A stretch of DNA of 20,720 nt from an uncultured Nitrospira sp. (GTDB lineage: Bacteria > Nitrospirota > Nitrospiria > Nitrospirales > Nitrospiraceae): assembly GCA_946479785.1 (NCBI GenBank), contig CAMLHQ010000059.1, positions 1 through 20,720 of the forward strand, written 5' to 3'. The translations under genes were made by a program, and so were the position numbers. Positions 554 through 19,057 of the stretch are shown piece by piece. Numbering within the stretch: the first letter of the stretch is position 1; every line of letters starts with the position of its first letter. Below the pieces are notes generated by a model. That model ran no database searches. It was given only the letters and a program-made list of their open reading frames with translations, and was not told where the DNA came from.

Positions 554-571
554 TCTGGGTGAGGCCCTAGT
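554..571 (+). promoter_or_regulatory. Degenerate member of the ACTAGG-N6-CCTAGT site family
   Basis: The sequence is TCTGGG-TGAGGC-CCTAGT. The right half-site is perfect and the left matches 4 of 6 bases. It ends 34 bases before the start codon at 606. A further CCCTAGT (565-571) and ACTAGGG (585-591) form a perfect 7-bp inverted repeat with a 13-base spacer. The same half-sites recur at 9991-10008, 10757-10774 and 11097-11114. The operator role is an inference. Confidence 0.4.
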
Positions 572-605
572 TAGTTCCAGACACACTAGGGTGTACGGTG
601 ACAGC

Positions 606-845
606 ATGGAAGACCACGAACCGATCCTGATGTGTGCGTCCTGCTGGCGAATTCAGCCTTTAGAGGACGACCTGAGTTCGGAACCGGATCGATGGATCGA
701 TCCGACGACGTTTATGGCCTGCGGACAATTGAGCTCACATGAATATGAAATCATTGATGGGTACTGCGATCCTTGCTTGATGGAGATAGCCCTGCGGGAT
801 CACCACGCTCTGGTCCGCGCAGCCGGAGAGCGCACCAACGCGTAA
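606..845 (+). CDS. Small double-CxxC protein resembling the zinc tail of PAS kinases
   Basis: A protein of 79 residues starting MEDHEPILMCASC. Two CxxC pairs (CASC near residue 10, CDPC near residue 58) flank a central tryptophan and an acidic stretch. This order resembles the short tail found at the end of many PAS histidine kinases and receivers (CASCKxIR, a Trp, then HGICPDC), here as a separate protein. The two pairs would suit one structural zinc or a redox pair. The frame is open upstream to a TTG at 525, but the ATG at 606 begins at the conserved part and lies after the palindrome at 554-591; no strong ribosome binding site marks either start. It ends 13 bases before the TPR gene, so the two are probably co-transcribed. 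Function unknown. Confidence 0.65.
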   Translation: MEDHEPILMCASCWRIQPLEDDLSSEPDRWIDPTTFMACGQLSSHEYEIIDGYCDPCLMEIALRDHHALVRAAGERTNA

Positions 846-2301: not shown

Positions 2302-4278
2302 TTAAAACGGCAGAGGTTCCTGTGGATCCACGAGGTGAATTGCACCGCATTGTATGCTTTTAATGGTGTGATAGAGAGAGTCAGCAGCGGACTCTTTGGT
2401 GAGGAGGGTAAGCGCTCCGGCTGCTTTCATGACCTGCTGCATTTGAGGAGAGGCATTGACCGAAAGTCCGATGACGGCCGAGCCAGGTAAGGCTTTTGTA
2501 ATCCGCCTCGTCGCCTCGATGCCATCCATTTGCGGCATGTTGACATCCATGATAATCACGTGCGGGAGCAGTCGCTTGGCCTCATCGACTGCATCCTCGC
2601 CGTTTCCAGCTTCTCCAACGACGTCGATTTCGGGGTATTCATTCAGCAGGGTCCGCAATCCCTCCCGTACCATGGCGTGGTCGTCCACCAACAGCACACG
2701 AATCACTTTCACGTCCCGTTGGGGTGCTGACTCCCGAGTGCGTCGTACCGAGTCAACCGAACGAGCTGATCGCTGATAGGCCCTGATCTCTCCGACAGGC
2801 TCAGCTTCGAATACTTTCAATTCGGCATTGTTGGTGAGCGGCAGCTCGAGCCTGGCAGTCGTACCGCAGCCCGGTGCGGAATCAATCGTGAAGGATCCGC
2901 CGAGCGCGTACATCCGTTCGCGGATGCTGAAGAGACCGAACTTATCGGCAGCGACCTCCGCGGTCGGACGGGCATCGAACCCGATGCCTTGGTCCTTCAC
3001 CGTGATGGTGAGTTGTGCGTCCTTTTCTTCCAGCATCACGAATGCACGCTCGGTCTTGGCATGCTTGACCACGTTCATCAACAACTCTCTCGCCGATTGA
3101 AAGAGCAATCCTTCCTGGTCGATGGAGAGCCACGGCCGCTCCTCCGGGACCTCGACCGTAACGAGAAGTTCATGACGTCGCATCTCTTCGCCTAGCCACG
3201 ACAGGGCCGAGGACAAACCGAATTGCGCGAGCACCGGCGGCAGGAGTTGAGCCACGAGAGATCGCGTATAGGTCAGCGACCGGTTGAGGACGTCGTCGGC
3301 TTCCTCGAGCGTCTCACGCAGTTCCGTTTCCCCACGTGTCTTTAAGGCCTGGGTCAACTTCATCCGGGTCACGACCAGGAGTTGCGCCAGATAATCGTGA
3401 AGTTCGCCGGCCAGACGGCGGCGTTCGCGTTGTTCCGTTAGATTCAGTTCGGACGTCAACGCGCGCAGCCGCTGCTCCGAATCGGTCAGCGCTTTGGTCC
3501 GTTCGGCGACTCGGCGCTCCAGATCCATCGTGAGCCGCATGAGCGCCGCCTCGGCCTCTTTCCGCTCGGTCACGTCCTCGATGACCGCGATGGTGCGCAA
3601 CGGCTCCCCGGCAGAGTCGCGGATCAGGCGCGCGGACACCCGGACCCATCGGATGTCACCGTCCTTCCGAAGATACCGCTTCTCGCTGTGATATACCTCG
3701 ATCTGACCTCGAAGCAGTCTCGTGGTTCCGACATCGTCGCTCGACCGATCTTCCGGATGGGCCAGGTCACGTGGCGTCATCGCCAGGAGCTCATCACGTT
3801 TGAACCCGGTGATGTCGCAAAAACGGTCGTTAACCCGGATGAAGCGGCCGGTCTCCGCACTCATCTGCGCCTGGCCCACCGCGGCCATTTCGAAATTCAC
3901 CCTGAACTGCTCTTCGCTGTCACTGAGCGCAATCTGCTGGCGACGCGCGCGGATCAACAGCAGCGAGACGATCCAGATCAGGACGACGCCCATCCCGCGA
4001 TTGACCATGGCAATCCAGGCGTCAAGGCCTGGACGGGATATAAAGAACAGAGTGGCGATCAAGACGGTCGCCGTCGTCGCACCGCCGATTACTAATCGCG
4101 CGTCAAACGGTGTCGTGCGCGACAGCAGCCAAATAGGCAGGAGATAGAGCAGCCAGACGGCAATGCCCAGTGGCGTGGTGAAATGCAAAAAACCGATCGC
4201 GCCGAACCAGGCCCCGACTGCAGCGTAAAACAACGGTCGTTTTGAAAGGGGACTCATAGATGTCCAGCCGGGCGTCAC
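2302..4278 (-). CDS. Membrane PAS histidine kinase (HisKA_3) fused to a NarL-type receiver
   Basis: A protein of 658 residues. Residues 14-110 hold about four transmembrane helices (TPLGIAVWLLYLLPIW is the second). A PAS domain follows (about 122-240), then a coiled coil (245-275). The HisKA_3 dimerisation domain has its phosphorylated histidine at about 294 in GELHDYLAQLL. The ATPase domain spans about 390-482, with N-box LLMNVVKHA, G1 DQGIGFD and a FGLFSIRERM motif. A receiver lies at 525-640 (VLLVDDH, acceptor Asp578 in IIMDVNMP, Lys in LTKES). The receiver is NarL-like but no HTH follows, so output must pass to another protein. It is third in a three-gene minus-strand array. The GTG start lies 3 bases after the upstream stop, implying coupling; the ATG at 4259 (MSPLSKRP) is an alternative. 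Confidence 0.88.
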   Translation of the reverse strand: MTPGWTSMSPLSKRPLFYAAVGAWFGAIGFLHFTTPLGIAVWLLYLLPIWLLSRTTPFDARLVIGGATTATVLIATLFFISRPGLDAWIAMVNRGMGVVLIWIVSLLLIRARRQQIALSDSEEQFRVNFEMAAVGQAQMSAETGRFIRVNDRFCDITGFKRDELLAMTPRDLAHPEDRSSDDVGTTRLLRGQIEVYHSEKRYLRKDGDIRWVRVSARLIRDSAGEPLRTIAVIEDVTERKEAEAALMRLTMDLERRVAERTKALTDSEQRLRALTSELNLTEQRERRRLAGELHDYLAQLLVVTRMKLTQALKTRGETELRETLEEADDVLNRSLTYTRSLVAQLLPPVLAQFGLSSALSWLGEEMRRHELLVTVEVPEERPWLSIDQEGLLFQSARELLMNVVKHAKTERAFVMLEEKDAQLTITVKDQGIGFDARPTAEVAADKFGLFSIRERMYALGGSFTIDSAPGCGTTARLELPLTNNAELKVFEAEPVGEIRAYQRSARSVDSVRRTRESAPQRDVKVIRVLLVDDHAMVREGLRTLLNEYPEIDVVGEAGNGEDAVDEAKRLLPHVIIMDVNMPQMDGIEATRRITKALPGSAVIGLSVNASPQMQQVMKAAGALTLLTKESAADSLYHTIKSIQCGAIHLVDPQEPLPF

Positions 4279-4281
4279 TCG

Positions 4282-6918
4282 CTAAACTGAGGCCTCAATC
4301 TTCTTCTTTTGTAGGTATTTTGTCGAGGTGGCCACGATGGCCCTATACACCACGTCGGCCGGCGCGCCTTTCGACAAGAACTCGTCCGCGCCGGCTCGCC
4401 GCATGGCGGCCTCTAGTTCCCGTGACGTGTTCACCGAGATACCGACGATGGCGGTGTGCCCGAAGGCCGCCTTGATGCGTCTCGTGGCCTCTATTCCGTC
4501 GATCTTAGGCATATTCACATCCATGATGACACAATCGGGACGGAGTTTGTCGACAAAGGCGACGGCTTCTTCGCCGTCCCACGCTTCACCGACAATGACG
4601 ACGTCGATGTGCTCCTGTAAGAGCCCTCTCATGCCTTCCCGCACCAAGGGGTGATCGTCGACCAACAGCACCCGAATGCGATTCGTGCCCCGCTCAAATC
4701 CTGAGTCTGGAGCACTGGGCGCTGAGTGAAGGAAGCGAGGTGATCGCTGACAGGGCACTGCCTCCCCGAGCGGTTCGGCACTCGTCACCTTTGCTTGAGC
4801 ACTCATTGATAGCGGTAGGACCAATCTGGCCGTCATGCCTTTCCCCGAGGCGGATTCCACCTCGAATCGCCCTCCGATCGCGAGCATCCGTTCCCGGATA
4901 CTGAAGAGGCCGAATTTCGAGGACATAGATGAAGGTGGGTTCGTGGTAGCGGTGGTGAGGGCCATGTGCACACCGGCCCCTTCGTCTCGGACCGTAATGC
5001 GCAAGTCGCCATCCTGTTGCTCGATGGCCACAACTGCCTGATCCGTCCCGGCATGCTTGCGCACATTGATCAACAACTCGCGAACCGATTGGAACAACAG
5101 CACCGCCTGGTCTTCCGGCAGGAGGATCCGGTCGGCCACTGACTGCCGTACCTCGACAGACAATTCCTGCCTGACCATCTGCTCCGCCAGCCACTTCAAA
5201 GCGGCCGGCAGCCCGAATTCGTGCAGAACCGGAGGGCTCAACTGGGTGACGAGTGTTCGTGTGTAGGTGAGGGCTTCGTTGACGACGGCTTCGGCTTCCC
5301 GCACGATTTCCGCTTGTGCGGGCGGAGAGGCCAGACGCTTGATCTGCCCGAGCTTCATGCGTAGCAACGCCAACAGCTGCGCGAGATAATCATGAAGATC
5401 GGTCGCCAGACGCTTTCGTTCACGCTGTTCGGTCAAATTCAAGTCCGTCGTCAACGCGCGAAGGCGTCCATGCAGGTTAACCAATTCGACGGTCCGTTCC
5501 GCGACGCGAGCCTCCAGTTCCTGCGTGAAGGAACGAAAGCGTGCTTCCGCCAACTTGCGCTCCGTCACGTCGAAGTTCACACCGATCATGCGCACTGGAT
5601 TTCCCCGTTCATCCTTGAGTACCCGCCCCTTCGCCGCCAGCCAACGGATCTGGCCATCGGATAAGACGACGCGGAATTCGTATTCCAAGGCGCCCACATC
5701 TTCGATGGCTCGTTGAACAGACTGCTGAATGACCGGGCGATCCTCCGGATGGATGTGGCAGTAGAACTCCGGACGAGAAGCACTCACACTGCCCTCCGAC
5801 AGTCCGAGCAAGGCGAACTCTTTAGAATCCCATCGCGTGGTGTCGTTGACAAGGTCCACGTCCCAGGCGCCCATTTCGCCACCGGCCAGGGCCAACCGCA
5901 AACGCTCCTCGCTTTGACGCAGTTCTTCCTGTGTACGGCGCAAGTCGGTCACATCGGTGTGGGTCCCAAACCAACGGGTAATTCGCCCCTCCCCGTTGCG
6001 AATCGGCGTTGCACGCGACAGAAACCAACGGTATCGGCCGTCCCGTCCTCGCATCGGGAACGTCTCCTCCCATGTTTCTCCCGTGTCACGCGCCCGGCGC
6101 CAGGTTTCGAGGACTCGATCCAGATGGTCGGGATGATGAACCTTCTCCCAGACTCGTCCCTCCGCCTCGTCGAATACGGCCCCCGTGTATTCGTACCAGC
6201 GCCGGTTGTACCAGAAAGGCAATCCGGTGGCATCCGCCATCCAGGCGAATTGGGTGATGTTGTCGGCCAACGTGCGGAACCGCTCTTCACTCTCGCGTAG
6301 CGCGTCATTAGCCAGCTTGCGCTGAGTAATATCGGTGGCAACGCCGAGTACGTGCGTCGCTCGACCCTGCTCGTCGAACAGCGGCCGCTTGACCGTTTGC
6401 AGCCAACGAATCGAACCGGTAGCGTCGGTGATGGTCTCCTCGGGAATGAGTAGGTCTTTGAGCGAATCGAGGACGTCGCGGTCCTTCTGCTGAAAATGAG
6501 CGACTTCGTGCTCATTCGCATTGAAATCCGCGTCCGTCTTACCGAGCAGTCCTTCCACCGTGGTACCGTAACAATCCGCGACTGCCTGGTTGACTAAGGT
6601 GAATCGCCCTTGCCGGTCTTTAGCAAACACGAAATTGGGGTCCGTATCGATGATCTGACGGATGAAGGCATGAGATTTTCGAAGCGCCTCTTCCGTTCCT
6701 TGCCCGTCCGTCGTGTCGCCCACGGCGGTATTGATGCCGAAGTCATACACAACGGCCTCCGACAGCTCAGCGGCGCGTCTTGATCGTTCGTCGGTGACGC
6801 GCAACTGTTCTTCAGCCTGGCGGCCTTGCCCAATCCGCGTTTCGTACTCGGCGAGCTTTAATCGCAGGGCGGTATTTTCACGGAGGAGAGCGTCGTAAGA
6901 GGGCATCGACTCTGTCAT
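4282..6918 (-). CDS. Soluble triple-PAS histidine kinase (HisKA_3) fused to a NarL-type receiver
   Basis: A protein of 878 residues with no transmembrane helix. A coiled coil comes first (about 8-60), then three PAS domains with their PAC motifs (about 80-205, 210-335 and 340-460; THVLGVATDIT, RWFGTHTDVT and MIGVNFDVTERK). A second coiled coil is followed by HisKA_3, with the phospho-acceptor near His509 in TDLHDYLAQLL. The ATPase carries RELLINVRKHA, DEGAGV and FGLFSIRERM. The receiver lies at about 747-860 with acceptor Asp800 in VIMDVNMP. The PAS domains probably sense a small ligand or redox state in the cytoplasm. No HTH follows the receiver. I start at the ATG at 6918; a TTG at 6927 and an ATG at 6906 are alternatives, none with a strong ribosome binding site. 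It is the second gene of the array, 83 bases after the first. Confidence 0.87.
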   Translation of the reverse strand: MTESMPSYDALLRENTALRLKLAEYETRIGQGRQAEEQLRVTDERSRRAAELSEAVVYDFGINTAVGDTTDGQGTEEALRKSHAFIRQIIDTDPNFVFAKDRQGRFTLVNQAVADCYGTTVEGLLGKTDADFNANEHEVAHFQQKDRDVLDSLKDLLIPEETITDATGSIRWLQTVKRPLFDEQGRATHVLGVATDITQRKLANDALRESEERFRTLADNITQFAWMADATGLPFWYNRRWYEYTGAVFDEAEGRVWEKVHHPDHLDRVLETWRRARDTGETWEETFPMRGRDGRYRWFLSRATPIRNGEGRITRWFGTHTDVTDLRRTQEELRQSEERLRLALAGGEMGAWDVDLVNDTTRWDSKEFALLGLSEGSVSASRPEFYCHIHPEDRPVIQQSVQRAIEDVGALEYEFRVVLSDGQIRWLAAKGRVLKDERGNPVRMIGVNFDVTERKLAEARFRSFTQELEARVAERTVELVNLHGRLRALTTDLNLTEQRERKRLATDLHDYLAQLLALLRMKLGQIKRLASPPAQAEIVREAEAVVNEALTYTRTLVTQLSPPVLHEFGLPAALKWLAEQMVRQELSVEVRQSVADRILLPEDQAVLLFQSVRELLINVRKHAGTDQAVVAIEQQDGDLRITVRDEGAGVHMALTTATTNPPSSMSSKFGLFSIRERMLAIGGRFEVESASGKGMTARLVLPLSMSAQAKVTSAEPLGEAVPCQRSPRFLHSAPSAPDSGFERGTNRIRVLLVDDHPLVREGMRGLLQEHIDVVIVGEAWDGEEAVAFVDKLRPDCVIMDVNMPKIDGIEATRRIKAAFGHTAIVGISVNTSRELEAAMRRAGADEFLSKGAPADVVYRAIVATSTKYLQKKKIEASV

Positions 6919-7001
6919 AACAGTCAAAGTGTTGAATCGCCGTCGAGTGAGTAGTTATCTGAATCCACACATTCCCATCACGACAACTCACCATTTTAAA
7001 T

Positions 7002-9896
7002 TCAACATCCGACGTTGACCTTTCGTGTCACTGCTCCGATCGTTTCGTACAGATGATCGGCGGCGCTCTCTTTGGTGAGACATGCAGCAGCCCCGGCGGC
7101 CTTCATCGATTTCACCACATGCTCGTTCACTGAAAGGCCGACGATCAACGTTTCAGGCAATTCTTCCCGAATTCGTTTCGTCGCTTCAATCCCGTCGAGT
7201 CGAGGCATGTTGACGTCCATCACGATGACGTCCGGTTTGAGCAGGCGAGCGAGCGTGATCGCTTCCTCTCCGTCTCCCGCCTCAGCAATAATGTGCAGGT
7301 TCGAATAACCATCCAGGAGGCTTCGCAAGCCTTGCCGTACCATGGCGTGGTCATCCACCAACAGCACACGAATATGATTCGTGTGCTGTGGGAGCGCTGA
7401 GGAGCGAGCACTGAAGACCGAGTGATCCGAGAAGAGGCGTGGTTGCTCAGCCCACAATCCGGTCCTGCCCTCGCCTACTGTGACGCCCAACGCGATTGTT
7501 GTGCCAGCGCCCGGTTGCGATTGCAATTCCATCCATCCGTCGATTGCTTCCATCCTTTCGCGGATACTGAACAGCCCGAATTTGTCGCTTCCTGACTCCA
7601 TGACGGTATTCGGATCACACCCCACTCCATCATCCTGCACTACAATCTGCAGCTTGCCCTGGCCATTGTCGCTCATCCTCACAACAGCCCGGTCGGTGCC
7701 GGCGTGCTTCAAGACATTGAACAGCAATTCACGCACGCACTGGTACAACAGCGTCGTTTGGTCTTCCGACAGCGGCGGAGTCACGGCTGGCGCATCCACA
7801 TGGACACTGAGGCCTTGTTTCAACATGCGCTCGCCGAGCCAGTGCAATCCGGCTGCAAGGCCGAATTGCCGTAAGGTCGGAGGCATCAATTCGGCTACCA
7901 CCGTACGCGTGTATGTGAGGCTTTGATCGATAAGCTGGTCGGCTTCCTGGAGCACGGCGCAGGCCGGATCCGGTGCGATCATTTGAGCCGCATGATTGAG
8001 CTTCAGTCTGGTCACCACGAGCATCTGCGCCAGATAGTCGTGCAGCTCGCTGGCAATCCGCTGACGTTCGCGCTGTTCCGTGAGGGTCAGGTCTTGCGCG
8101 AGGCCGCGGAGGCGGTCGTGCGTACGCACCAGTTCCTTCGTACGTTCATTGACCCGCCGTTCCAATTCTCTCATCCACTCCTGACCTTGCATCTCCGCCT
8201 GCCTGCGTTCGGTAATGTCGAACGTGACGCCGACGAATCTGGTCGGGCGTCCGCCCTCGTCGTAATGAATGCGCCCGTAAGGGGCCAACCACCTGAGTTC
8301 CCCATTATCGGCACGCCGAATTCGATGTTCAGCCTGGCGTAAAGTTCCGGTACTTCTGGCGTTGTCCATGGCCTGACGCACTGGCATCCGATCCTCGTCA
8401 TGCACCAGAGCCCACCATTGTCTAATTGAGGCCTTGCAGGAGTCCGGTTCGTAACCGAGCACGAGTGCGTTTTGGCGGTTCCAGATCACTCGACCGGTCC
8501 GAAGATCCACATCCCACGCGCCCATCCCCGCTCCTTCCGTCGCAAACCGAAGCCGTTCTTCCTGTTCAGCGACCTGCTCGGCGCGCTGCCGCGTTTCTTG
8601 AAGCAGGCGGCGACGCTCCTTCGCCGTCGCCACATAATTCGAGACAGCCTCCATCAATTCCAGGTCCTCCCGATCGAACGACTGTCGGCTGCCGGTCGCA
8701 AATGCCAACGTGCCGAGAAGCCGCTCGCCGACGATCTGGGGAAAACAGGCATAGGCGGTCGAACCGACCGCCTGCATCCGCGACGCTTTGGGATCCGTGC
8801 AGGCTTGCAAACAATCGACGACGACCGGCCGCCGCGATGCCGCCGAGGTACCGCACAGCGCTTGCCCGAACTCCAGGAACATCAGCGGCTGCAGCGCCTG
8901 ATCGGGAATGCCGGACCATGCCACCATGCGAAGCCCGCTGTTGTCGGGGACAACGTCATAATCGAGGAACGTCTCAAGATCCAACGTTGTTTTCAGCGAG
9001 ACAAAAATGTCTTGTATCACCTCGACAGGATCGTCCACGTGCAGGAGCTTGTCCATCGTCTCGCTCAACAGTTGTTGCCGACGGGCGTGCGTCCTCAACT
9101 CGAGTTCCGCCCGTTTGCGCGCGTCGATATCTTCGATGACGCCGATTAACGATTGAATTCTGCCGCCGGCATCCCACTGGATCGAAAACGTGACCGTCAC
9201 CCAGATGATGTCGCCGTCCGGCCGCAAGAGCCGCTGATCCAATGAGACCTCGGAGAGCCCGCCGAGCAACAGTGTCCCGACTTGACTTTCATGTTCTGCG
9301 CGATCGCCGGGATGGGTCAGATCGCGCAACTCCTGTTTTATGAGATCGTGTTCGGGACGTCCGGTGATGACGCACAGCTTCTCGTTTACCCGCAGCAGTC
9401 GCCCGTCCGGACCGACCACACACATTCCGACCGCCGCCTGTTCGAAGAGGCCACGGAATTGTTCTTCACTGCGGCGCAGGCGGGCGAGCAATCCCTCGTT
9501 TTCCCGCTGTCGCTCGCGCAAACGCAGCAGCGATCGAACGGCGGCGAGTAGTTCCTCTTCATCGATCGGCTCAATGAGATAGCCGTCTGAACCCATATCT
9601 AATCCCAACGCCCGGTTCGTTCCGCTCACCAGAGCGGCTGACACATGCAATACCATCGTATCCGTCAGCTCGGGTCGTTTCTTAATCTGGCGGCACAAGT
9701 CGAAGCCACTGATGTCCGGGAGATTCACGTCCATCAATACCAACTCGGGCTGCACGTCTTCCAGCACACGCCAGACGTCCGAGCCGCAGTTTGCATCGAT
9801 GACGCGATAGCCGGCTCGCTCCAATATGCGCCGCCTCACATACCGTCCCGCCTCCTGATCGTCTACGTTGACGATCGTTGCCACCTCTTCGGTCAT
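7002..9896 (-). CDS. Receiver-PAS-GAF-PAS histidine kinase (HisKA_3) with second, NarL-type receiver
   Basis: A soluble protein of 964 residues. The first receiver is at residues 8-125 (acceptor Asp56 in LVLMDVNLP); its usual Lys-Pro is Glu-Pro (GYLIEPID). A PAS domain follows (about 145-265), then a GAF-like domain (about 285-435, with CGTSAASRRPVVV and QIVGERLLGTLAF) and a second PAS (about 450-575). HisKA_3 has its phospho-acceptor near His619 in SELHDYLAQML. The ATPase carries LLFNVLKHA, DDGVGCD and FGLFSIRERM. The C-terminal receiver spans 841-955 with acceptor Asp894 and Lys942. Two receivers around one kinase suggest an input from another kinase and an output to a third protein. The ATG at 9896 is chosen because GAGAGG lies about 7 bases upstream; a TTG at 9914 is less likely. 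It is the first gene of the array. Confidence 0.9.
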   Translation of the reverse strand: MTEEVATIVNVDDQEAGRYVRRRILERAGYRVIDANCGSDVWRVLEDVQPELVLMDVNLPDISGFDLCRQIKKRPELTDTMVLHVSAALVSGTNRALGLDMGSDGYLIEPIDEEELLAAVRSLLRLRERQRENEGLLARLRRSEEQFRGLFEQAAVGMCVVGPDGRLLRVNEKLCVITGRPEHDLIKQELRDLTHPGDRAEHESQVGTLLLGGLSEVSLDQRLLRPDGDIIWVTVTFSIQWDAGGRIQSLIGVIEDIDARKRAELELRTHARRQQLLSETMDKLLHVDDPVEVIQDIFVSLKTTLDLETFLDYDVVPDNSGLRMVAWSGIPDQALQPLMFLEFGQALCGTSAASRRPVVVDCLQACTDPKASRMQAVGSTAYACFPQIVGERLLGTLAFATGSRQSFDREDLELMEAVSNYVATAKERRRLLQETRQRAEQVAEQEERLRFATEGAGMGAWDVDLRTGRVIWNRQNALVLGYEPDSCKASIRQWWALVHDEDRMPVRQAMDNARSTGTLRQAEHRIRRADNGELRWLAPYGRIHYDEGGRPTRFVGVTFDITERRQAEMQGQEWMRELERRVNERTKELVRTHDRLRGLAQDLTLTEQRERQRIASELHDYLAQMLVVTRLKLNHAAQMIAPDPACAVLQEADQLIDQSLTYTRTVVAELMPPTLRQFGLAAGLHWLGERMLKQGLSVHVDAPAVTPPLSEDQTTLLYQCVRELLFNVLKHAGTDRAVVRMSDNGQGKLQIVVQDDGVGCDPNTVMESGSDKFGLFSIRERMEAIDGWMELQSQPGAGTTIALGVTVGEGRTGLWAEQPRLFSDHSVFSARSSALPQHTNHIRVLLVDDHAMVRQGLRSLLDGYSNLHIIAEAGDGEEAITLARLLKPDVIVMDVNMPRLDGIEATKRIREELPETLIVGLSVNEHVVKSMKAAGAAACLTKESAADHLYETIGAVTRKVNVGC

Positions 9897-10212
9897 GTCA
9901 GACCTCTCTATCAATGCAGTTGCACCCGATGTGGGAAGTCGAGTTTAGTAAGAAGGCGAGTCACACTAAAAGTTCGGCGGAGAATTGCATACTAGGGAGG
10001 CCCCTAGGCTTCCAAAAATGAGTTTGCGTGGTGCTTGCCGCAATGCCAACTACTGTGAGGTACTCACGTTGTTAATAGACGGTGGAGATGCAAGAGGCGA
10101 GTACTGGAACGATCTCCTTTTGGATCGGAGGCAATTCGAAGCATGATTGGGAAGAGTAACGTGGAGGAAGCTACGAGTCACCACAACTGTTGTTGTATGG
10201 GCGCACTGACGC
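9897..10212. other. Intergenic region upstream of the kinase array
   Basis: This 316-base stretch holds no convincing gene. It must contain the promoter of the kinase array and carries the palindrome at 9991-10008. A GGAGAT/ATCTCC pair (10084-10089, 10112-10117) with a 22-base spacer is too weak to name. Confidence 0.6.
9991..10008 (-). promoter_or_regulatory. ACTAGG-N6-CCTAGG palindrome upstream of the kinase array
   Basis: On the plus strand this reads ACTAGG-GAGGCC-CCTAGG. Within it CTAGGG (9992-9997) and CCCTAG (10002-10007) are a perfect 6-bp inverted repeat. Read in the direction of the downstream gene (minus) it is CCTAGGGGCCTCCCTAGT, matching the site at 11097-11114 at 15 of 18 positions. 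It ends 94 bases before the kinase start at 9896. An operator or promoter element is the simplest reading; the binding protein is unknown. Confidence 0.5.
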
Positions 10213-10650
10213 TTATTTGGCTGGAGGGGGTAGCTCGTGGACTTCCGCCGGCAGCGTCTCAATGACCTTGATGACGCGGCCGTCTTCGTCGAGCTGCATC
10301 GTGACGCGGTCTCCGATTGACAGGCGCTCGAACAATTCCGGCCGGTCAATTCTAAAAAAGATCGGCTTCTCGAGGTCTGTCATCAGCATCCCTTTTCCCG
10401 CCGATATATCCAATTTCGCGAGCGTTCCCGAGACTCTGAGCTGCGCCTGGGGCTGCTCGAGTGCGAGTCGTGAGTTCTCGCTTCTGCCTGGAATTGGGAA
10501 GAACAAACAGGCGAAAAGGATGGAGGCCAACAGTGTTCCTGAGAGAGAGACGGAGCCGGACAGGGTACCCTCGTTTTCCCGCTGCCTAACGCTGGCGAAA
10601 CCTCTTGCGATTCCCCCGCTGTACTGGCTGCGCTGAGCCGGAGCTTCCAC
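10213..10650 (-). CDS. Membrane-anchored or exported small protein of unknown function
   Basis: A protein of 145 residues. An unusually long N-terminal stretch (about 38 residues) precedes one hydrophobic segment (LLASILFACLFFPIPG), then a domain of about 80 residues. The domain has the pattern RVSGTLAKLDI, MLMTDLEKPIFFRID, FERLSIGDRVTMQLDEDGRVIKVIE and a Pro-rich end (ELPPPAK). This looks like one small beta-barrel and recalls the protein at 1957-2193. The GTG start at 10650 has AGAGGG five bases upstream. A TTG just before ASILFACLFF would give a more ordinary signal peptide, with CAGGA ahead of it, so the start is not settled. A palindrome of the ACTAGG/CCTAGT type lies 107 bases upstream. 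No function assigned. Confidence 0.6.
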   Translation of the reverse strand: MEAPAQRSQYSGGIARGFASVRQRENEGTLSGSVSLSGTLLASILFACLFFPIPGRSENSRLALEQPQAQLRVSGTLAKLDISAGKGMLMTDLEKPIFFRIDRPELFERLSIGDRVTMQLDEDGRVIKVIETLPAEVHELPPPAK

Positions 10651-10756
10651 ACTCGCCCTCTTTAACAGCCACGCGCCCTACCCATGAAGGCTCGTTACCA
10701 CCAAGCCATGCTCCACGGGTACATATGCAGTAAAGCGCGTTTACAGCGGATCCACT

Positions 10757-10774
10757 ACTAGGCTGTGCCCCAGT
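10757..10774 (-). promoter_or_regulatory. ACTAGG-N6-CCCAGT palindrome overlapping a stop codon
   Basis: The plus strand reads ACTAGG-CTGTGC-CCCAGT, one mismatch from a perfect dyad with 6-bp arms. In the direction of the gene at 10650 it is ACTGGGGCACAGCCTAGT. Its last base falls in the stop codon of the winged-helix gene, and it lies 107-124 bases upstream of the next gene's start. Confidence 0.42.
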
Positions 10775-11022
10775 CAAGCGGCCGGGAGGGTGACCATATA
10801 AACGCCAGAGCGCTTGGACAACAGCCGTAGCTCGCCCGTTCGACTGAGATGATCCACTGCAAGGAAGACCTGATTCCACGTGTAGGAAGGACAACCTTTC
10901 ACCAGCTCTTCTATGTCGCACACCTGCCTACACTTTACCATTTGAAAAATCTGGCCAGTGATGTCCGATTGCCGAACGGCATCGGACGACACAGAAGAAG
11001 GAGCAGCCACTAGTGGTTTCAT
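10774..11022 (-). CDS. Small winged-helix-like protein
   Basis: A protein of 82 residues starting MKPLVAAPSS. Residues 20-80 form a compact domain: DITGQIFQMVKCRQVCDIEELVKG, then CPSYTWNQVFLAVDHLSRTGELRLL, then RSGVYMVTLP. The order helix, helix, a longer helix carrying WNQVFLAVDHLSRTGEL, then two strands (a wing) is what a winged helix-turn-helix looks like. It could bind DNA, although the basic surface is modest. The frame is open to 11088, but the ATG at 11022 has an excellent AGGAGG ribosome binding site six bases upstream, so the shorter form is chosen. ACTAGG/CCTAGT palindromes lie 75 bases upstream and across its stop codon, which makes it a candidate binder of them. That link is inference. 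Confidence 0.7.
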   Translation of the reverse strand: MKPLVAAPSSVSSDAVRQSDITGQIFQMVKCRQVCDIEELVKGCPSYTWNQVFLAVDHLSRTGELRLLSKRSGVYMVTLPAA

Positions 11023-11096
11023 AATTCTCCTCCTCTGGTTGTGTGTTTTTGTGGAATGAACAAGATGGAAGTTACGCCGATTAATCAATCGAACCC

Positions 11097-11114
11097 ACTA
11101 GGTAAGCCCCTAGT
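11097..11114 (-). promoter_or_regulatory. Perfect ACTAGG-N6-CCTAGT palindrome
   Basis: ACTAGG (11097-11102) and CCTAGT (11109-11114) are exact reverse complements around TAAGCC. The site sits 75-92 bases upstream of the winged-helix gene, in the divergent region shared with the methyltransferase gene (start 11313). It is the best of the four copies in this window. Confidence 0.55.
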
Positions 11115-11312
11115 TTCTTTGAGCTCGATGTAAAATTTGTGCAATGTGAAGGAAACTGCCTCGCATCACTCATTCTTCAGAGATACACACTCTGCCGGAC
11201 TCTACTCATCATTCATCTCATCCCCTCAGCCCACATATTTCTTGGGTTCTGCCCAGTTGGCTCGCGCTCTTCCGGTTCGTAGAGTGAGCGACACGCATAG
11301 GAGGGGCGGTCC

Positions 11313-12551
11313 ATGGGATTGCCGCAGCATCGAACTGAAGACGAGGCGGAGTTCGTCGCACAACAAGACTCGGGCGGCAAGGAGGATCTCGATCTCGGAC
11401 GGCAGCCGCGCGTCTGTGTCGGATGCCGGTTATGCGGTTCGCGCCGGTCCCGTCTCGTTTGCCCGGACGAGGACATCGCGGCGCAATGGAGATTTCTCGA
11501 ACAATTTTATCGCCGCCGCTGGCGTGAACGGAATGCGGCCACGGCGACGGATCGTCTGCGGTTTACGCAGGATTATGCGACGGAAATCGTAGCTTGTACT
11601 GACTGCGGCCTGCTTTACCGTAACCCTCGTCCGCGCGCGGAGGCGGTGACCAAGGCCTACGAAGCTGATCACTACGATGGCGCCTACTTATGGGCAGAGT
11701 TAGAGGCTCAGCGGGCGTGGGCCAGGACAAAGATGCCGGTTGTGGCCAAACATCTCAAGAAGACCGTGAAACGGGCAACGCCCCGCATTCTGGAAATTGG
11801 CAGCTTCGTCGGCGGATTTCTGTACGAAGGAAGAGAACGAGGCTGGGACATGTTCGGGGTCGACCCGGGCCGGGATGTCGCGGCGTTCTGTCGCGGGCAG
11901 CGGTTGCCGGTATTCGAAGGGACACTCGAAGAAGCGAAGCTCCAGCCGTCATCGTTCGATGCGATTGCCGTTTGGAACACCTTCGATCAACTTCCGGATC
12001 CACATGTGCTCTTGAAGCATGCAGTTCCCTTATTGCGCGACGGAGGCCTGTTGATTGTTCGTGTGCCGAACGGCGCTTGTTTCGATTGGGCGATGAGGGT
12101 GCGAGCGGTTCTGCCACGAGCCATTCGACCGTCGTTAGATCTGGCGCTTGCCTTCAACAATCTCTTGACGTTCCCGTACCTATACGGCTACTCAGCCGAT
12201 CAACTTGAACGACTGACGGCTTCCTATGGATTTCGCCTCCTCGCCTGCCTGCCGGATCAACTGTCGTCAACGCCGGCAGGCCAATTGACCTGGTGGGCCA
12301 AGTGGGAAGAGCAGGTACTTAAATCGCTCTGCCGGGCGGTAGCCGCCGTCTGGCGGGACGATCGGTCTCATCATTACCGTTCTGCTCCCTGGCTCGATTG
12401 CTTCTTCGAGCGGGCATGCGCGGAAGAGGACCGTTTGGTGACTGCGAAGATGCGCCTAGGGGTTGTCCCAGTGTACTCGCCTCTAGTCTTCGAGGACACT
12501 GACTCTGACCGTCGAGGTATGTGGTGGGACCGGGAAGGAGGCTTACCATGA
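11313..12551 (+). CDS. Class I SAM-dependent methyltransferase with N-terminal Zn-ribbon
   Basis: A protein of 412 residues. An N-terminal zinc-binding module is suggested by CVGCRLCG (residues 35-42) and CTDCGLLYRNPRP (95-107). The Rossmann-type methyltransferase domain follows: motif I RILEIGSFVGGFL (158-170), an acidic residue after the second strand (FGVDPG, Asp184), FDAIAVWNTFDQLPDP around 215-230, and LLRDGGLLIVRVPN about 20 residues later. This is the layout of Methyltransf_11/23-type enzymes that modify sugars, quinones or secondary metabolites, often with the CxxC-CxxCG front end. The substrate cannot be told. The ATG has AGGAGGGG at 11299-11306, six bases upstream. Its stop overlaps the start of the next small gene (ATGA). 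Confidence 0.88.
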   Translation: MGLPQHRTEDEAEFVAQQDSGGKEDLDLGRQPRVCVGCRLCGSRRSRLVCPDEDIAAQWRFLEQFYRRRWRERNAATATDRLRFTQDYATEIVACTDCGLLYRNPRPRAEAVTKAYEADHYDGAYLWAELEAQRAWARTKMPVVAKHLKKTVKRATPRILEIGSFVGGFLYEGRERGWDMFGVDPGRDVAAFCRGQRLPVFEGTLEEAKLQPSSFDAIAVWNTFDQLPDPHVLLKHAVPLLRDGGLLIVRVPNGACFDWAMRVRAVLPRAIRPSLDLALAFNNLLTFPYLYGYSADQLERLTASYGFRLLACLPDQLSSTPAGQLTWWAKWEEQVLKSLCRAVAAVWRDDRSHHYRSAPWLDCFFERACAEEDRLVTAKMRLGVVPVYSPLVFEDTDSDRRGMWWDREGGLP

Positions 12552-17341: not shown

Positions 17342-19057
17342 TCATGCTTCTGTGGCCGGCAATGTGTAGCGTTCCTCGATAGCATTGGCCACGCGCTTCC
17401 GGCTGTCGTAGGCCGATAATGACGGCGTCTCCTCCACTTGGTGGACCATACGCGCCAACGACGGATCTTTGATCGCGCTTTCCATCCAGCGGGAATAATC
17501 GCCCTTTCGTAAATGATGGAGCCATGTCGCATCGTCGACGCCCTCAGCCAGTTGCCGGAATACAATGAGATTCTGAGCACGGAGGTTCAGCTTCCCGTCC
17601 GGGCCACGAAAATAGAAACTGCGCTCAGGAGGCAGCTCCCCTTCCGCATATTTCCGGCGGTGACGTCGGCGCTCAATGCGGGAAAAGGCCATGAGAAAGG
17701 TCGCAGGAGGGAGGCTTCCCTTGGGCCGCCAGATCATTGCTTCACCCGGTTCCAACACCGTAGACGGTACCGCTGGAATGACCAGGCCCACTCGGTCGGC
17801 AAAAGAGTGCATGGTCCTGACGGGCTCGTCCCCCAAGATAACCGCGGTATCGATCGCCTTCAGCACCACCGGAGACACCTGATCAGGATGTACGGTCACA
17901 AACAGCATGCCGTTCATGTCCCCCATCGCTTCGGAAGCCGGCCTCCACTTCGATGGCAAGAGATGGTGGGTCTCATCAACCAGGATGCGGTGAGGACGGC
18001 CCGATTGAGCCTGCCGTTCTTGAAGACGGGGAAGCAGCTCTAAGAAAAATGCGGGGCGGTCCTCGAGTGGAAGTCCCACGAGATTGACGATGACTTGCGC
18101 CTCGGCATTGTCCAGCGCGGTCAAGATTTCAGCGACAGTCGGGCCCCGCCTGGCATTGCCGAAAACGATCATTTTTTCGATCGACTCATAGTCACCCTCT
18201 GGATCGATGACGCAGACTTGATAACCTCGATCGGTCAGTTGCTCGAGGATGCCATGAGCCAACGACGATTTGCCGCTGCCTGACGTCCCGGCAATCAAGA
18301 GATTTTCGCCGACCGGCGACATGACAACCGTGGCGCCGTCCACAAAGGATCCCAGCGCGACATGATGCCTCGTCAACCGTTCTGATTGATCGGCCAGGTC
18401 ATCAGCGATTAAGGCAGACAAGGCCTCCGCAGTGCCGTTTCCGTTTTCCTGCCTCGTCACCCAATCGGCTACGTCACGGAGCGTTGACACGGCGCTGCCG
18501 ACAGCGATTGCAAGCTCGCTGGATTGAAACAGCGCGTGATCGTTCTCGCTGTCGCCGATTCCCACGACGTTATGGGGTGAAAGTTGCAGCTCGGCTAAAG
18601 CGGATTTCAGGCCGCTGGCCTTATTAATGCCCGGAGGCAATACCATCACCGATTCGCGATTGAATACCACGTGATGCTCGAGACCCAAATCGCGGATGGC
18701 TTCGAGGACTGAGACCTCATGCGGCCTGACCGTCGCCACAATAGAGTCTCCGACCTGCAGCGGCACGCCTTTCCGTTCTAGGGCTTCGATCAAAGGCTTG
18801 GAGACCGGCTCTGCGAGCAACCGTTGTTCGCGAGCGGCTGGACGGTACAACACCGCGCCATTTTCAGCAACGATCCTGGCGCAGAGGTCGGCCTGCGGAA
18901 AAATGGAGAGCAGCTCCTGAAGAATTCGTCCGGTGACCAGGATGAACTTGCGGCCGGAGGCGACGAGATGTTCGAGCGCGGTCACAGTCTTGGGCTGGAC
19001 GGTGCCATTGTGAGCCAGAGTCCCGTCGTAATCGATGGCTACGGCCGCAAATCGCAT
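17342..19057 (-). CDS. HAD-family phosphatase fused to a HerA/FtsK-like ATPase
   Basis: A protein of 571 residues with two enzyme parts. Residues 1-225 are a Cof-type (HAD-IIB) phosphatase: AIDYDGTL (nucleophile Asp9, Asp11), LVTGR (39-43), Lys146 in INKASG and GIGDSEND (166-173). Residues 235-470 are a P-loop ATPase of the HerA/DUF87 kind: LLIAGTSGSGKSSLA (Walker A at about 257-265), VIDPEGDYE (283-291) and ILVDETHHLL (Walker B, 358-367). The C-terminal part (about 470-571) is basic and helical (RRRHRRKYAEGELPP, then LRKGDYSRWMESAI), without a family I can name. All catalytic residues of both parts appear intact. The ATG at 19057 (MRFAAVAIDYDG) starts right at the HAD fold. It is followed after 22 bases by the PepSY lipoprotein gene. 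Substrates are unknown. Confidence 0.87.
   Translation of the reverse strand: MRFAAVAIDYDGTLAHNGTVQPKTVTALEHLVASGRKFILVTGRILQELLSIFPQADLCARIVAENGAVLYRPAAREQRLLAEPVSKPLIEALERKGVPLQVGDSIVATVRPHEVSVLEAIRDLGLEHHVVFNRESVMVLPPGINKASGLKSALAELQLSPHNVVGIGDSENDHALFQSSELAIAVGSAVSTLRDVADWVTRQENGNGTAEALSALIADDLADQSERLTRHHVALGSFVDGATVVMSPVGENLLIAGTSGSGKSSLAHGILEQLTDRGYQVCVIDPEGDYESIEKMIVFGNARRGPTVAEILTALDNAEAQVIVNLVGLPLEDRPAFFLELLPRLQERQAQSGRPHRILVDETHHLLPSKWRPASEAMGDMNGMLFVTVHPDQVSPVVLKAIDTAVILGDEPVRTMHSFADRVGLVIPAVPSTVLEPGEAMIWRPKGSLPPATFLMAFSRIERRRHRRKYAEGELPPERSFYFRGPDGKLNLRAQNLIVFRQLAEGVDDATWLHHLRKGDYSRWMESAIKDPSLARMVHQVEETPSLSAYDSRKRVANAIEERYTLPATEA

What the first reader, a model, noticed from the sequence alone, without database searches (positions are those of the whole stretch)
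9991..11114. A recurrent ACTAGG-N6-CCTAGT palindrome upstream of neighbouring genes
Seen directly: 9991-10008, 10757-10774 and 11097-11114 share ACTAGG, a 6-base spacer and CCTAGT with at most one mismatch; a weaker copy is at 554-571. Read in the direction of the gene that follows, all four end in an intact CCTAGT and start with (A/C/T)CT(A/G)GG. They lie 34, 94, 106 and 74 bases before the start codons of the CxxC protein, the first kinase of the array, the membrane-anchored small protein and the winged-helix protein. Constant spacer, dyad symmetry and upstream placement point to a dimeric regulator's operator that I cannot match to a known one. That it controls these genes is inference.
Basis: partly seen in the sequence, partly recalled or inferred. 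Interest (0 to 1): 0.7.

Follow-up and report, generated by a model that had tools for sequence, protein, structure and literature searches.

The report
Shared stress-gene switch in Nitrospira promoters
The repeated 18-letter DNA palindrome is most likely the docking site of a gene activator, placed at one fixed distance before many stress-survival genes in the nitrite-oxidising family Nitrospiraceae; the activator is probably a response-regulator protein, which has not been proven.

Summary
The sites belong to a promoter architecture of the family Nitrospiraceae: ACTAGG-N6-CCTAGT, exactly 22 nt, then a -10 hexamer (TAnnnT). The palindrome thus covers about -52 to -35, the place of a class II activator. 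Among 147 Nitrospiraceae genomes the composite occurs 335 times, the reversed control 52 times; of 151 further genomes of the phylum only one has it. In fetched loci 131 sites are intergenic and 9 coding. Sites cluster in stress-gene islands; the window looks like part of one. Sites precede homologues of the window's CxxC and winged-helix proteins. The best-supported binders are NarL/FixJ response regulators with the helix KTVEFHK: 33 genomes without a match hold 2 sites (control 11). A convergent RR1/RR2 gene pair shows in 19 of 20 fetched loci (the 20th is cut by a contig end), and 17 of 20 carry sites. CRP-type and winged-helix rivals fit worse. Binding is untested.

The parts
554..571 (+). 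operator TCTGGG-N6-CCTAGT (2 mismatches) reading to the CxxC protein gene
594..599 (+). -10-like hexamer TACGGT, 22 nt after operator 554
606..845 (+). CxxC protein (79 aa, no Pfam match); similar to the small CxxC protein behind the RR3-linked operator in other Nitrospiraceae (alignment scores 82 and 90, best of 300 shuffles 41 and 38)
9991..10008 (-). operator CCTAGG-N6-CCTAGT (1 mismatch) reading to the first hybrid kinase gene
9963..9968 (-). -10-like hexamer TAGTGT
7002..9896 (-). hybrid histidine kinase (two Response_reg, PAS, GAF, HisKA_3, HATPase); no DNA-binding domain in the Pfam list
10757..10774 (-). operator ACTGGG-N6-CCTAGT (1 mismatch) reading to the small membrane-anchored protein gene
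10729..10734 (-). -10-like hexamer TTTACT (one departure from TAnnnT)
   Evidence: no Pfam match
11097..11114 (-). perfect operator ACTAGG-N6-CCTAGT reading to the winged-helix protein gene
11069..11074 (-). -10-like hexamer TAACTT
10774..11022 (-). winged-helix-like protein (82 aa; fold read from sequence only), family, no Pfam match; homologues follow the operator in relatives
11240..11257 (+). weaker candidate operator TCTTGG-N6-CCCAGT (3 mismatches) reading to the methyltransferase gene at 11313
11280..11285 (+). -10-like hexamer TAGAGT, 22 nt after operator 11240

Best explanation
The palindrome is an activator operator in sigma-70-type promoters of a stress regulon in Nitrospiraceae. A dimer binds the two half-sites (ACTAGG/CCTAGT, 12 bp apart) at about -52 to -35, in place of a -35 element, and recruits RNA polymerase to a -10 that lies exactly 22 nt downstream (class II activation). 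The dimer is most likely one or more paralogous NarL/FixJ response regulators (REC plus GerE-type HTH with recognition helix KTVEFHK; RR1, RR2 and RR3 are my labels), phosphorylated by HisKA_3-type (hybrid) kinases. Shown by computation: the site, its fixed spacer, the fixed -10 distance, intergenic placement, recurrence before homologous genes, near-restriction to Nitrospiraceae within the phylum sample, and co-occurrence with these regulators. Inferred: direct binding, activation, phosphorylation, and which paralogue acts.
For: -10 geometry: of 107 non-redundant sites (133 before filtering), read both ways, 33 of 214 have a -10 above 4 bits at offset 22, against 0-9 at every other offset from 0 to 63. 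In 20 loci chosen by the RR1 protein and not by the motif: 26 composites at offset 22, 1-9 at other offsets from 10 to 35; 0-1 at other spacers. Direction: of 88 oriented sites the promoter points at the flanking gene in 42 and away in 14; 32 with genes on both sides or on neither say nothing. Family scan: 335 against 52 control, 82 of 147 genomes with a site; 34 genomes have 4 or more, control 0. Outside: 1 of 151 newly drawn genomes has it (G295, 3 sites); in it an RR1/RR2-like convergent pair and a 63% RR3 relative lie 1.2 and 2.2 kb from two of those sites. Regulator: 20 genomes with RR1 at 85% identity or more hold 156 sites, 28 with RR1 at 59-68% hold 98, 66 with only other members hold 79, 33 with no match to RR1 at E<=1e-60 hold 2 against control 11; Fisher p 6e-9, not corrected for kinship (one of the 33, G033, matches with the RR3 query). 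A convergent second regulator stands beside RR1 in 19 of 20 fetched loci (the 20th, L149, is cut by a contig end), and 17 of 20 carry a composite site. RR1-RR3 are Response_reg + GerE. Precedents, passages read: CrbR, a LuxR-family response regulator, needs an inverted repeat at -52 to -36 (PMC5715377); GacA box TGTAAGN6CTTACA (PMC11837529); UvrY binds an 18-nt palindrome (PMC4682653).
Against: No binding or expression data. RR1 lies in the island that carries many sites, so its correlation with site number is partly linkage. Genomes without the regulators are often small and may be related or incomplete; completeness is not told. In some searches only about 20 candidates per genome were scored, so member counts are lower bounds. 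Counter-examples: G024 has 2 composites and an exact site but no match to the RR3 query even at E<=1e-40; G082, G044 and G144 have an RR1 orthologue but no composite at one mismatch; G143 and G130 have several members and no composite, and G002 has at least six and only two composites. G269, G217 and G244, outside the 147, have RTVEFHK regulators without a composite. Three of 27 RR3 loci lack the linked site in the listings. The window holds no full NarL-type regulator, and several of its -10 hexamers are weak.
Confidence: 0.72

Rival explanations
1. A CRP/FNR-family regulator binds the site (half-site-N6-half-site resembles the CRP design) and activates from about -41.5.
For: A CRP-like gene lies beside sites in G001 and G006, homologues lie within about 1.5 kb of sites in G024 and G007, and the layout resembles class II CRP sites (recalled).
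Against: The homologue is found at E<=1e-60 in 44 of 147 genomes, and in only 5 of the 20 site-rich genomes with RR1 at 85% or more; it is missing from G092, G097, G072, G050 and G111. Other CRP/FNR subfamilies were not profiled. The centre implied by the 22-nt gap is -43.5, 2 bp from the classical CRP position (recalled).
Confidence: 0.1
2. The small winged-helix protein encoded behind the site is itself the dimeric regulator and controls its own gene and others.
For: The site lies just upstream of its gene in the window and of 16 of the 21 best family matches (cross-reading, biased because the profile came partly from such loci); autoregulation is typical of regulators (general knowledge).
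Against: The family occurs in 140 of 147 genomes, including 26 of the 33 that lack an RR1-type match and hold 2 sites in all; G002 has 11 copies and 2 composites. A fixed -10 distance over many unrelated genes suits an activator better than a repressor.
Confidence: 0.06
3. The operator is real but is bound by an unexamined regulator (for example another LuxR-type or a MerR-, TetR- or LysR-type protein) that co-occurs with the stress island.
For: Only three regulator types were profiled; the NarL correlation has counter-examples.
Against: 18-bp size, N6 spacer and -52 to -35 position match NarL/FixJ precedents, and NarL genes are recurrent neighbours of the sites.
Confidence: 0.17
4. The repeat acts as an RNA hairpin (attenuator or terminator) or is a mobile repeat.
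For: It is an inverted repeat in intergenic DNA.
Against: It lies upstream of the -10, so it would not be transcribed from that promoter. Changes at the outer pair are mostly uncompensated: pair 1-18 is not a standard pair in 37 of 127 distinct sites (sites were picked by closeness to the consensus). Flanks are mostly unrelated: 107 of 133 sites survive a 60% identity filter.
Confidence: 0.02

Closest known systems
CrbR/ACTU motif of Pseudomonas (LuxR-family response regulator with hybrid kinase CrbS)
   Same: inverted repeat at -52 to -36 before an RpoD promoter, required for activation (PMC5715377, passages read)
   Different: different half-site sequence, acetate genes, gammaproteobacteria; the regulator there was shown by reporter tests
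GacA/UvrY (Gac box TGTAAG-N6-CTTACA)
   Same: 18-bp palindrome with hexamer-N6-hexamer design, bound by a response regulator (PMC11837529; PMC4682653, passages read)
   Different: other sequence; UvrY signal lies far upstream (csrB -222 to -142) and drives small RNAs; here the site abuts the core promoter of protein genes
lux box / LuxR
   Same: palindrome near -42.5 in class II promoters (recalled, not from a call)
   Different: 20 bp, CTG/CAG halves, acyl-homoserine-lactone-binding regulator (recalled); here a REC domain is expected
CRP class II sites
   Same: half-site-N6-half-site near -41.5 (recalled)
   Different: TGTGA halves, shifted 2 bp, cyclic-nucleotide-binding regulator (recalled); the CRP-like candidate is missing from 15 of 20 site-rich genomes

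Membership tests
NarL/FixJ-type response-regulator operator (class II) | palindromic site of about 18-20 bp with fixed spacer | tested here: met
   spacer 6; 18 bp
NarL/FixJ-type response-regulator operator (class II) | position overlapping or abutting -35 with a -10 at fixed distance | tested here: met
   offset 22 peak; transcription starts not mapped
NarL/FixJ-type response-regulator operator (class II) | a REC+GerE regulator co-occurs with the site | tested here: met
   exceptions G024, G082, G044, G144; no correction for kinship
NarL/FixJ-type response-regulator operator (class II) | direct binding of the regulator and activation | not testable with these tools
   needs DNA-binding and reporter assays
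CRP/FNR operator | cognate CRP/FNR-type regulator present where sites are | tested here: not met
   for the one subfamily found beside sites: 44 of 147 genomes; missing in G092, G097, G072, G050, G111
CRP/FNR operator | site centred at -41.5 | tested here: inconclusive
   centre -43.5 if the -10 begins at -12; starts not mapped
autoregulatory operator of the winged-helix protein | protein absent where sites are absent | tested here: not met
   present in 26 of the 33 genomes without an RR1-type match

The most novel reading that the evidence does not exclude
A whole family of nitrite oxidisers may run its general stress response through one operator read by a set of paralogous response regulators, with the convergent RR1/RR2 pair acting as opposing or cooperating switches, and with the hybrid kinases that feed them encoded under the same operator (positive feedback): a stand-alone alternative to a stress sigma factor.
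Probability: 0.25. Interest if true: 0.78.

Novelty: new member of a known kind. Interest (0 to 1): 0.6.

Why it matters
Nitrospira drive nitrite oxidation in soils, water works and sewage plants (general knowledge), but little is known of their transcriptional control. A directional 46-bp promoter signature that works across much of the family lets anyone propose the regulon from sequence alone, ties small proteins of unknown function (CxxC, winged-helix) to stress genes, and names a few regulators to test. Three paper searches, for Nitrospira with ACTAGG, with general stress response plus response regulator, and with CsbD, listed 1, 9 and 1 papers, none describing it by title and abstract start. 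A fourth, on Nitrospira regulons and binding motifs (10 of 467 papers listed), gave a CRP/FNR study whose passages that I read show no such motif.

Tried and rejected
CRP/FNR-type binder of the subfamily found beside sites: rejected as the general binder. Winged-helix protein as binder: rejected as determinant. RNA hairpin: disfavoured. A small RNA behind the RR3-linked site (by analogy with GacA): the conserved stretch next to it is a small CxxC reading frame. Upstream half-site CTAG at -21: in 25 of 76 oriented sites of the first set but 3 of 56 in the later set, so a feature of some promoters only. The reversed pattern as control for the bare motif at one mismatch does not favour the motif: its count equals or exceeds the motif's in 14 of 15 genomes. 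With no mismatch the motif leads, 32 against 6 in 32 genomes, and the directional composite gave the clear contrast. No relatives in viral contigs; no tRNA and no Rfam match in the window. A paper search for CCTAGT with response regulator and palindrome listed seven papers; I looked into one, CrbR, where CCTAGT is in a primer. One search (GacA words, 8 of 1,175 listed) gave nothing used. Filters: 133 to 107 sites by 60% identity; 88 oriented and 76 by -10 score. One search's list was cut, so some one-mismatch sites of the last genomes were never fetched. Five listed places that I had first left out were fetched and counted later; three of them are copies of one in-gene site. The later set includes loci L108-L137 chosen by the composite, so its offset-22 peak is not independent; on RR1 loci is.

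Full report
Observation. They exceed chance by far: with at most one mismatch 3 sites are seen and a mean of 0.0025 is expected; no simulation of 400 reached the observed counts. No whole genome is held for the window. Its winged-helix protein found two relatives in genome contigs, both in Nitrospira genomes, RSF6 (G001) and UBA2083 (G002), so the window is read as Nitrospira-like.

The motif in relatives. In the 32 genomes of the genus of G001, 32 exact sites stand against 6 of the reversed pattern, in 17 of 32 genomes. I fetched 79 stretches around sites from 16 genomes. With a simple codon-usage gene finder, the window and these stretches hold 131 intergenic and 9 coding sites of up to two mismatches, while 295,835 bp were coding and 143,297 not; the 32 exact sites among them are all intergenic. 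The window alone has 5 intergenic and 2 coding. Four of the nine coding sites are one in-gene site in four related genomes. One search, before five listed places were added, had 129 and 6.

Promoter geometry. After removing similar flanks (133 to 107 sites), the -10 score has one sharp peak, exactly 22 nt after the palindrome (33 hits above 4 bits among 214 orientations; 0-9 elsewhere). In the oriented logo (88 sites, chosen by their -10 score) T stands at -12 in 61, A at -11 in 66, and G precedes the -10 in 42. There is no other strong element between site and -10. The palindrome then covers -52 to -35, taking the -10 to begin at -12. Each of the four window sites, read toward its gene, has a -10-like hexamer at this offset, and so has a weak fifth at 11240; the window alone would not prove the offset (6 hits against 1-5 elsewhere). 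The promoter points at the flanking gene 42 times and away 14 times; 32 cases are uninformative.

A directional test. The composite ACTAGG-N6-CCTAGT-N22-TANNNT with at most one mismatch was sought in 147 Nitrospiraceae genomes: 335 sites against 52 of the reversed composite; 82 of 147 genomes have a site; 34 have four or more, control none. In 198 genomes drawn from the phylum, 27 have a match; among the 151 not drawn before, only G295 has any (3 sites), while control hits number 49 there by my count of the table. So within this sample the architecture is nearly confined to Nitrospiraceae, and the reversed control overstates the true background.

What it controls. In G092 and G095 the sites mark starts of gene groups in an island of about 50-95 kb. 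Pfam confirms CsbD, ferritin, Fe-superoxide dismutase, Ku, BrkB/YihY, YtxH, BON, AI-2E, hemerythrin, alpha-amylase-type, NDH-2 and GH15 proteins in G092; four of the island proteins scanned had no match, and labels such as LigD or Hsp20-like are my reading of the sequence. The window carries island-type genes too: DUF1328, PepSY, BON (below its Pfam cut-off), a HAD-plus-HerA-like ATPase, and HisKA_3 hybrid kinases; its DUF1328 and HAD-ATPase genes have counterparts in G092 by sequence. The winged-helix protein matches the C-terminal part of a CxxC-winged-helix protein whose gene follows a site in G123, G050, G092, G076 and G099. Of the 21 best winged-helix matches, 16 have a site within 500 bp upstream (cross-reading); the profile came partly from such loci. 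The window CxxC protein resembles a small reading frame behind the site next to RR3, present in 7 of 7 loci aligned (alignment scores 82 and 90 against at most 41 in 300 shuffles). Of 27 genomes with RR3 at 84% or more, 22 show that site in the listings, 3 do not, and 2 could not be read.

The regulator. Recurrent neighbours are NarL/FixJ response regulators with the recognition helix K(T/A)(V/I)EFHK (Pfam Response_reg + GerE). Site number follows them: 156 sites in 20 genomes with RR1 at 85% or more, 98 in 28 with RR1 at 59-68%, 79 in 66 with only other members, 2 in 33 with no match to RR1, where the control gives 11; one of the 33, G033, matches with RR3. RR1 and a second regulator are convergent in 19 of 20 loci fetched by RR1 (L149 is cut by a contig end), and 17 of 20 carry a composite within the fetched 3-4.7 kb. 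G295, the one new genome with sites, carries such a pair and an RR3 relative at 1.2 and 2.2 kb from two sites; in 28 other newly drawn genomes searched with RR3, the three closest matches are 50-55% identical. Several of these outside regulators carry KT(V/I)ETHR instead.

Against. RR1 is inside the island, so linkage inflates the correlation, and kinship was not corrected. G024 has sites without a match to the regulators; G082, G044 and G144 have RR1 without composites; G143 and G130 have members without composites; three outside genomes have RTVEFHK without composites. No experiment supports binding.

Comparison. CrbR, a LuxR-family response regulator, acts on an inverted repeat at -52 to -36 (PMC5715377, passages read), nearly the same place. 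The Gac box has the same 6-6-6 design (PMC11837529), and UvrY binds an 18-nt palindrome (PMC4682653). I file the system as a new regulon of a known kind, with the regulator assignment open.

Noticed in passing
window 594-608: The predicted transcription start for the CxxC gene lies about 6-7 nt after the -10, at the ATG itself, so the transcript may be leaderless.
   Followed up: no
window 2302-9896: Three kinase frames with a C-terminal receiver of NarL type; the two scanned with Pfam (2302-4278, 7002-9914) show HisKA_3 and no DNA-binding domain, as if output went to a separate regulator.
   Followed up: partly
L146-L165: RR1 and a second NarL-type regulator are convergent neighbours in 19 of 20 loci fetched by RR1 (L149 is cut), in several beside a superoxide-dismutase-like and a porin-like gene.
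   Followed up: partly
L075, L079, L082, L104, L105 and others: In the genus of G001 a CTAG(TAA) half-site recurs exactly 21 nt upstream of the palindrome start (25 of 76 oriented sites), often at winged-helix genes.
   Followed up: partly
window 17342-19057: One protein joins a HAD-type phosphatase with a HerA-like ATPase; an equivalent stands in the G092 island.
   Followed up: no
L111, L112, L121, L124, L129, L130, L136: Behind the small CxxC gene lies a stretch without a predicted gene that holds several highly conserved blocks, before an outer-membrane-efflux-like gene.
   Followed up: no
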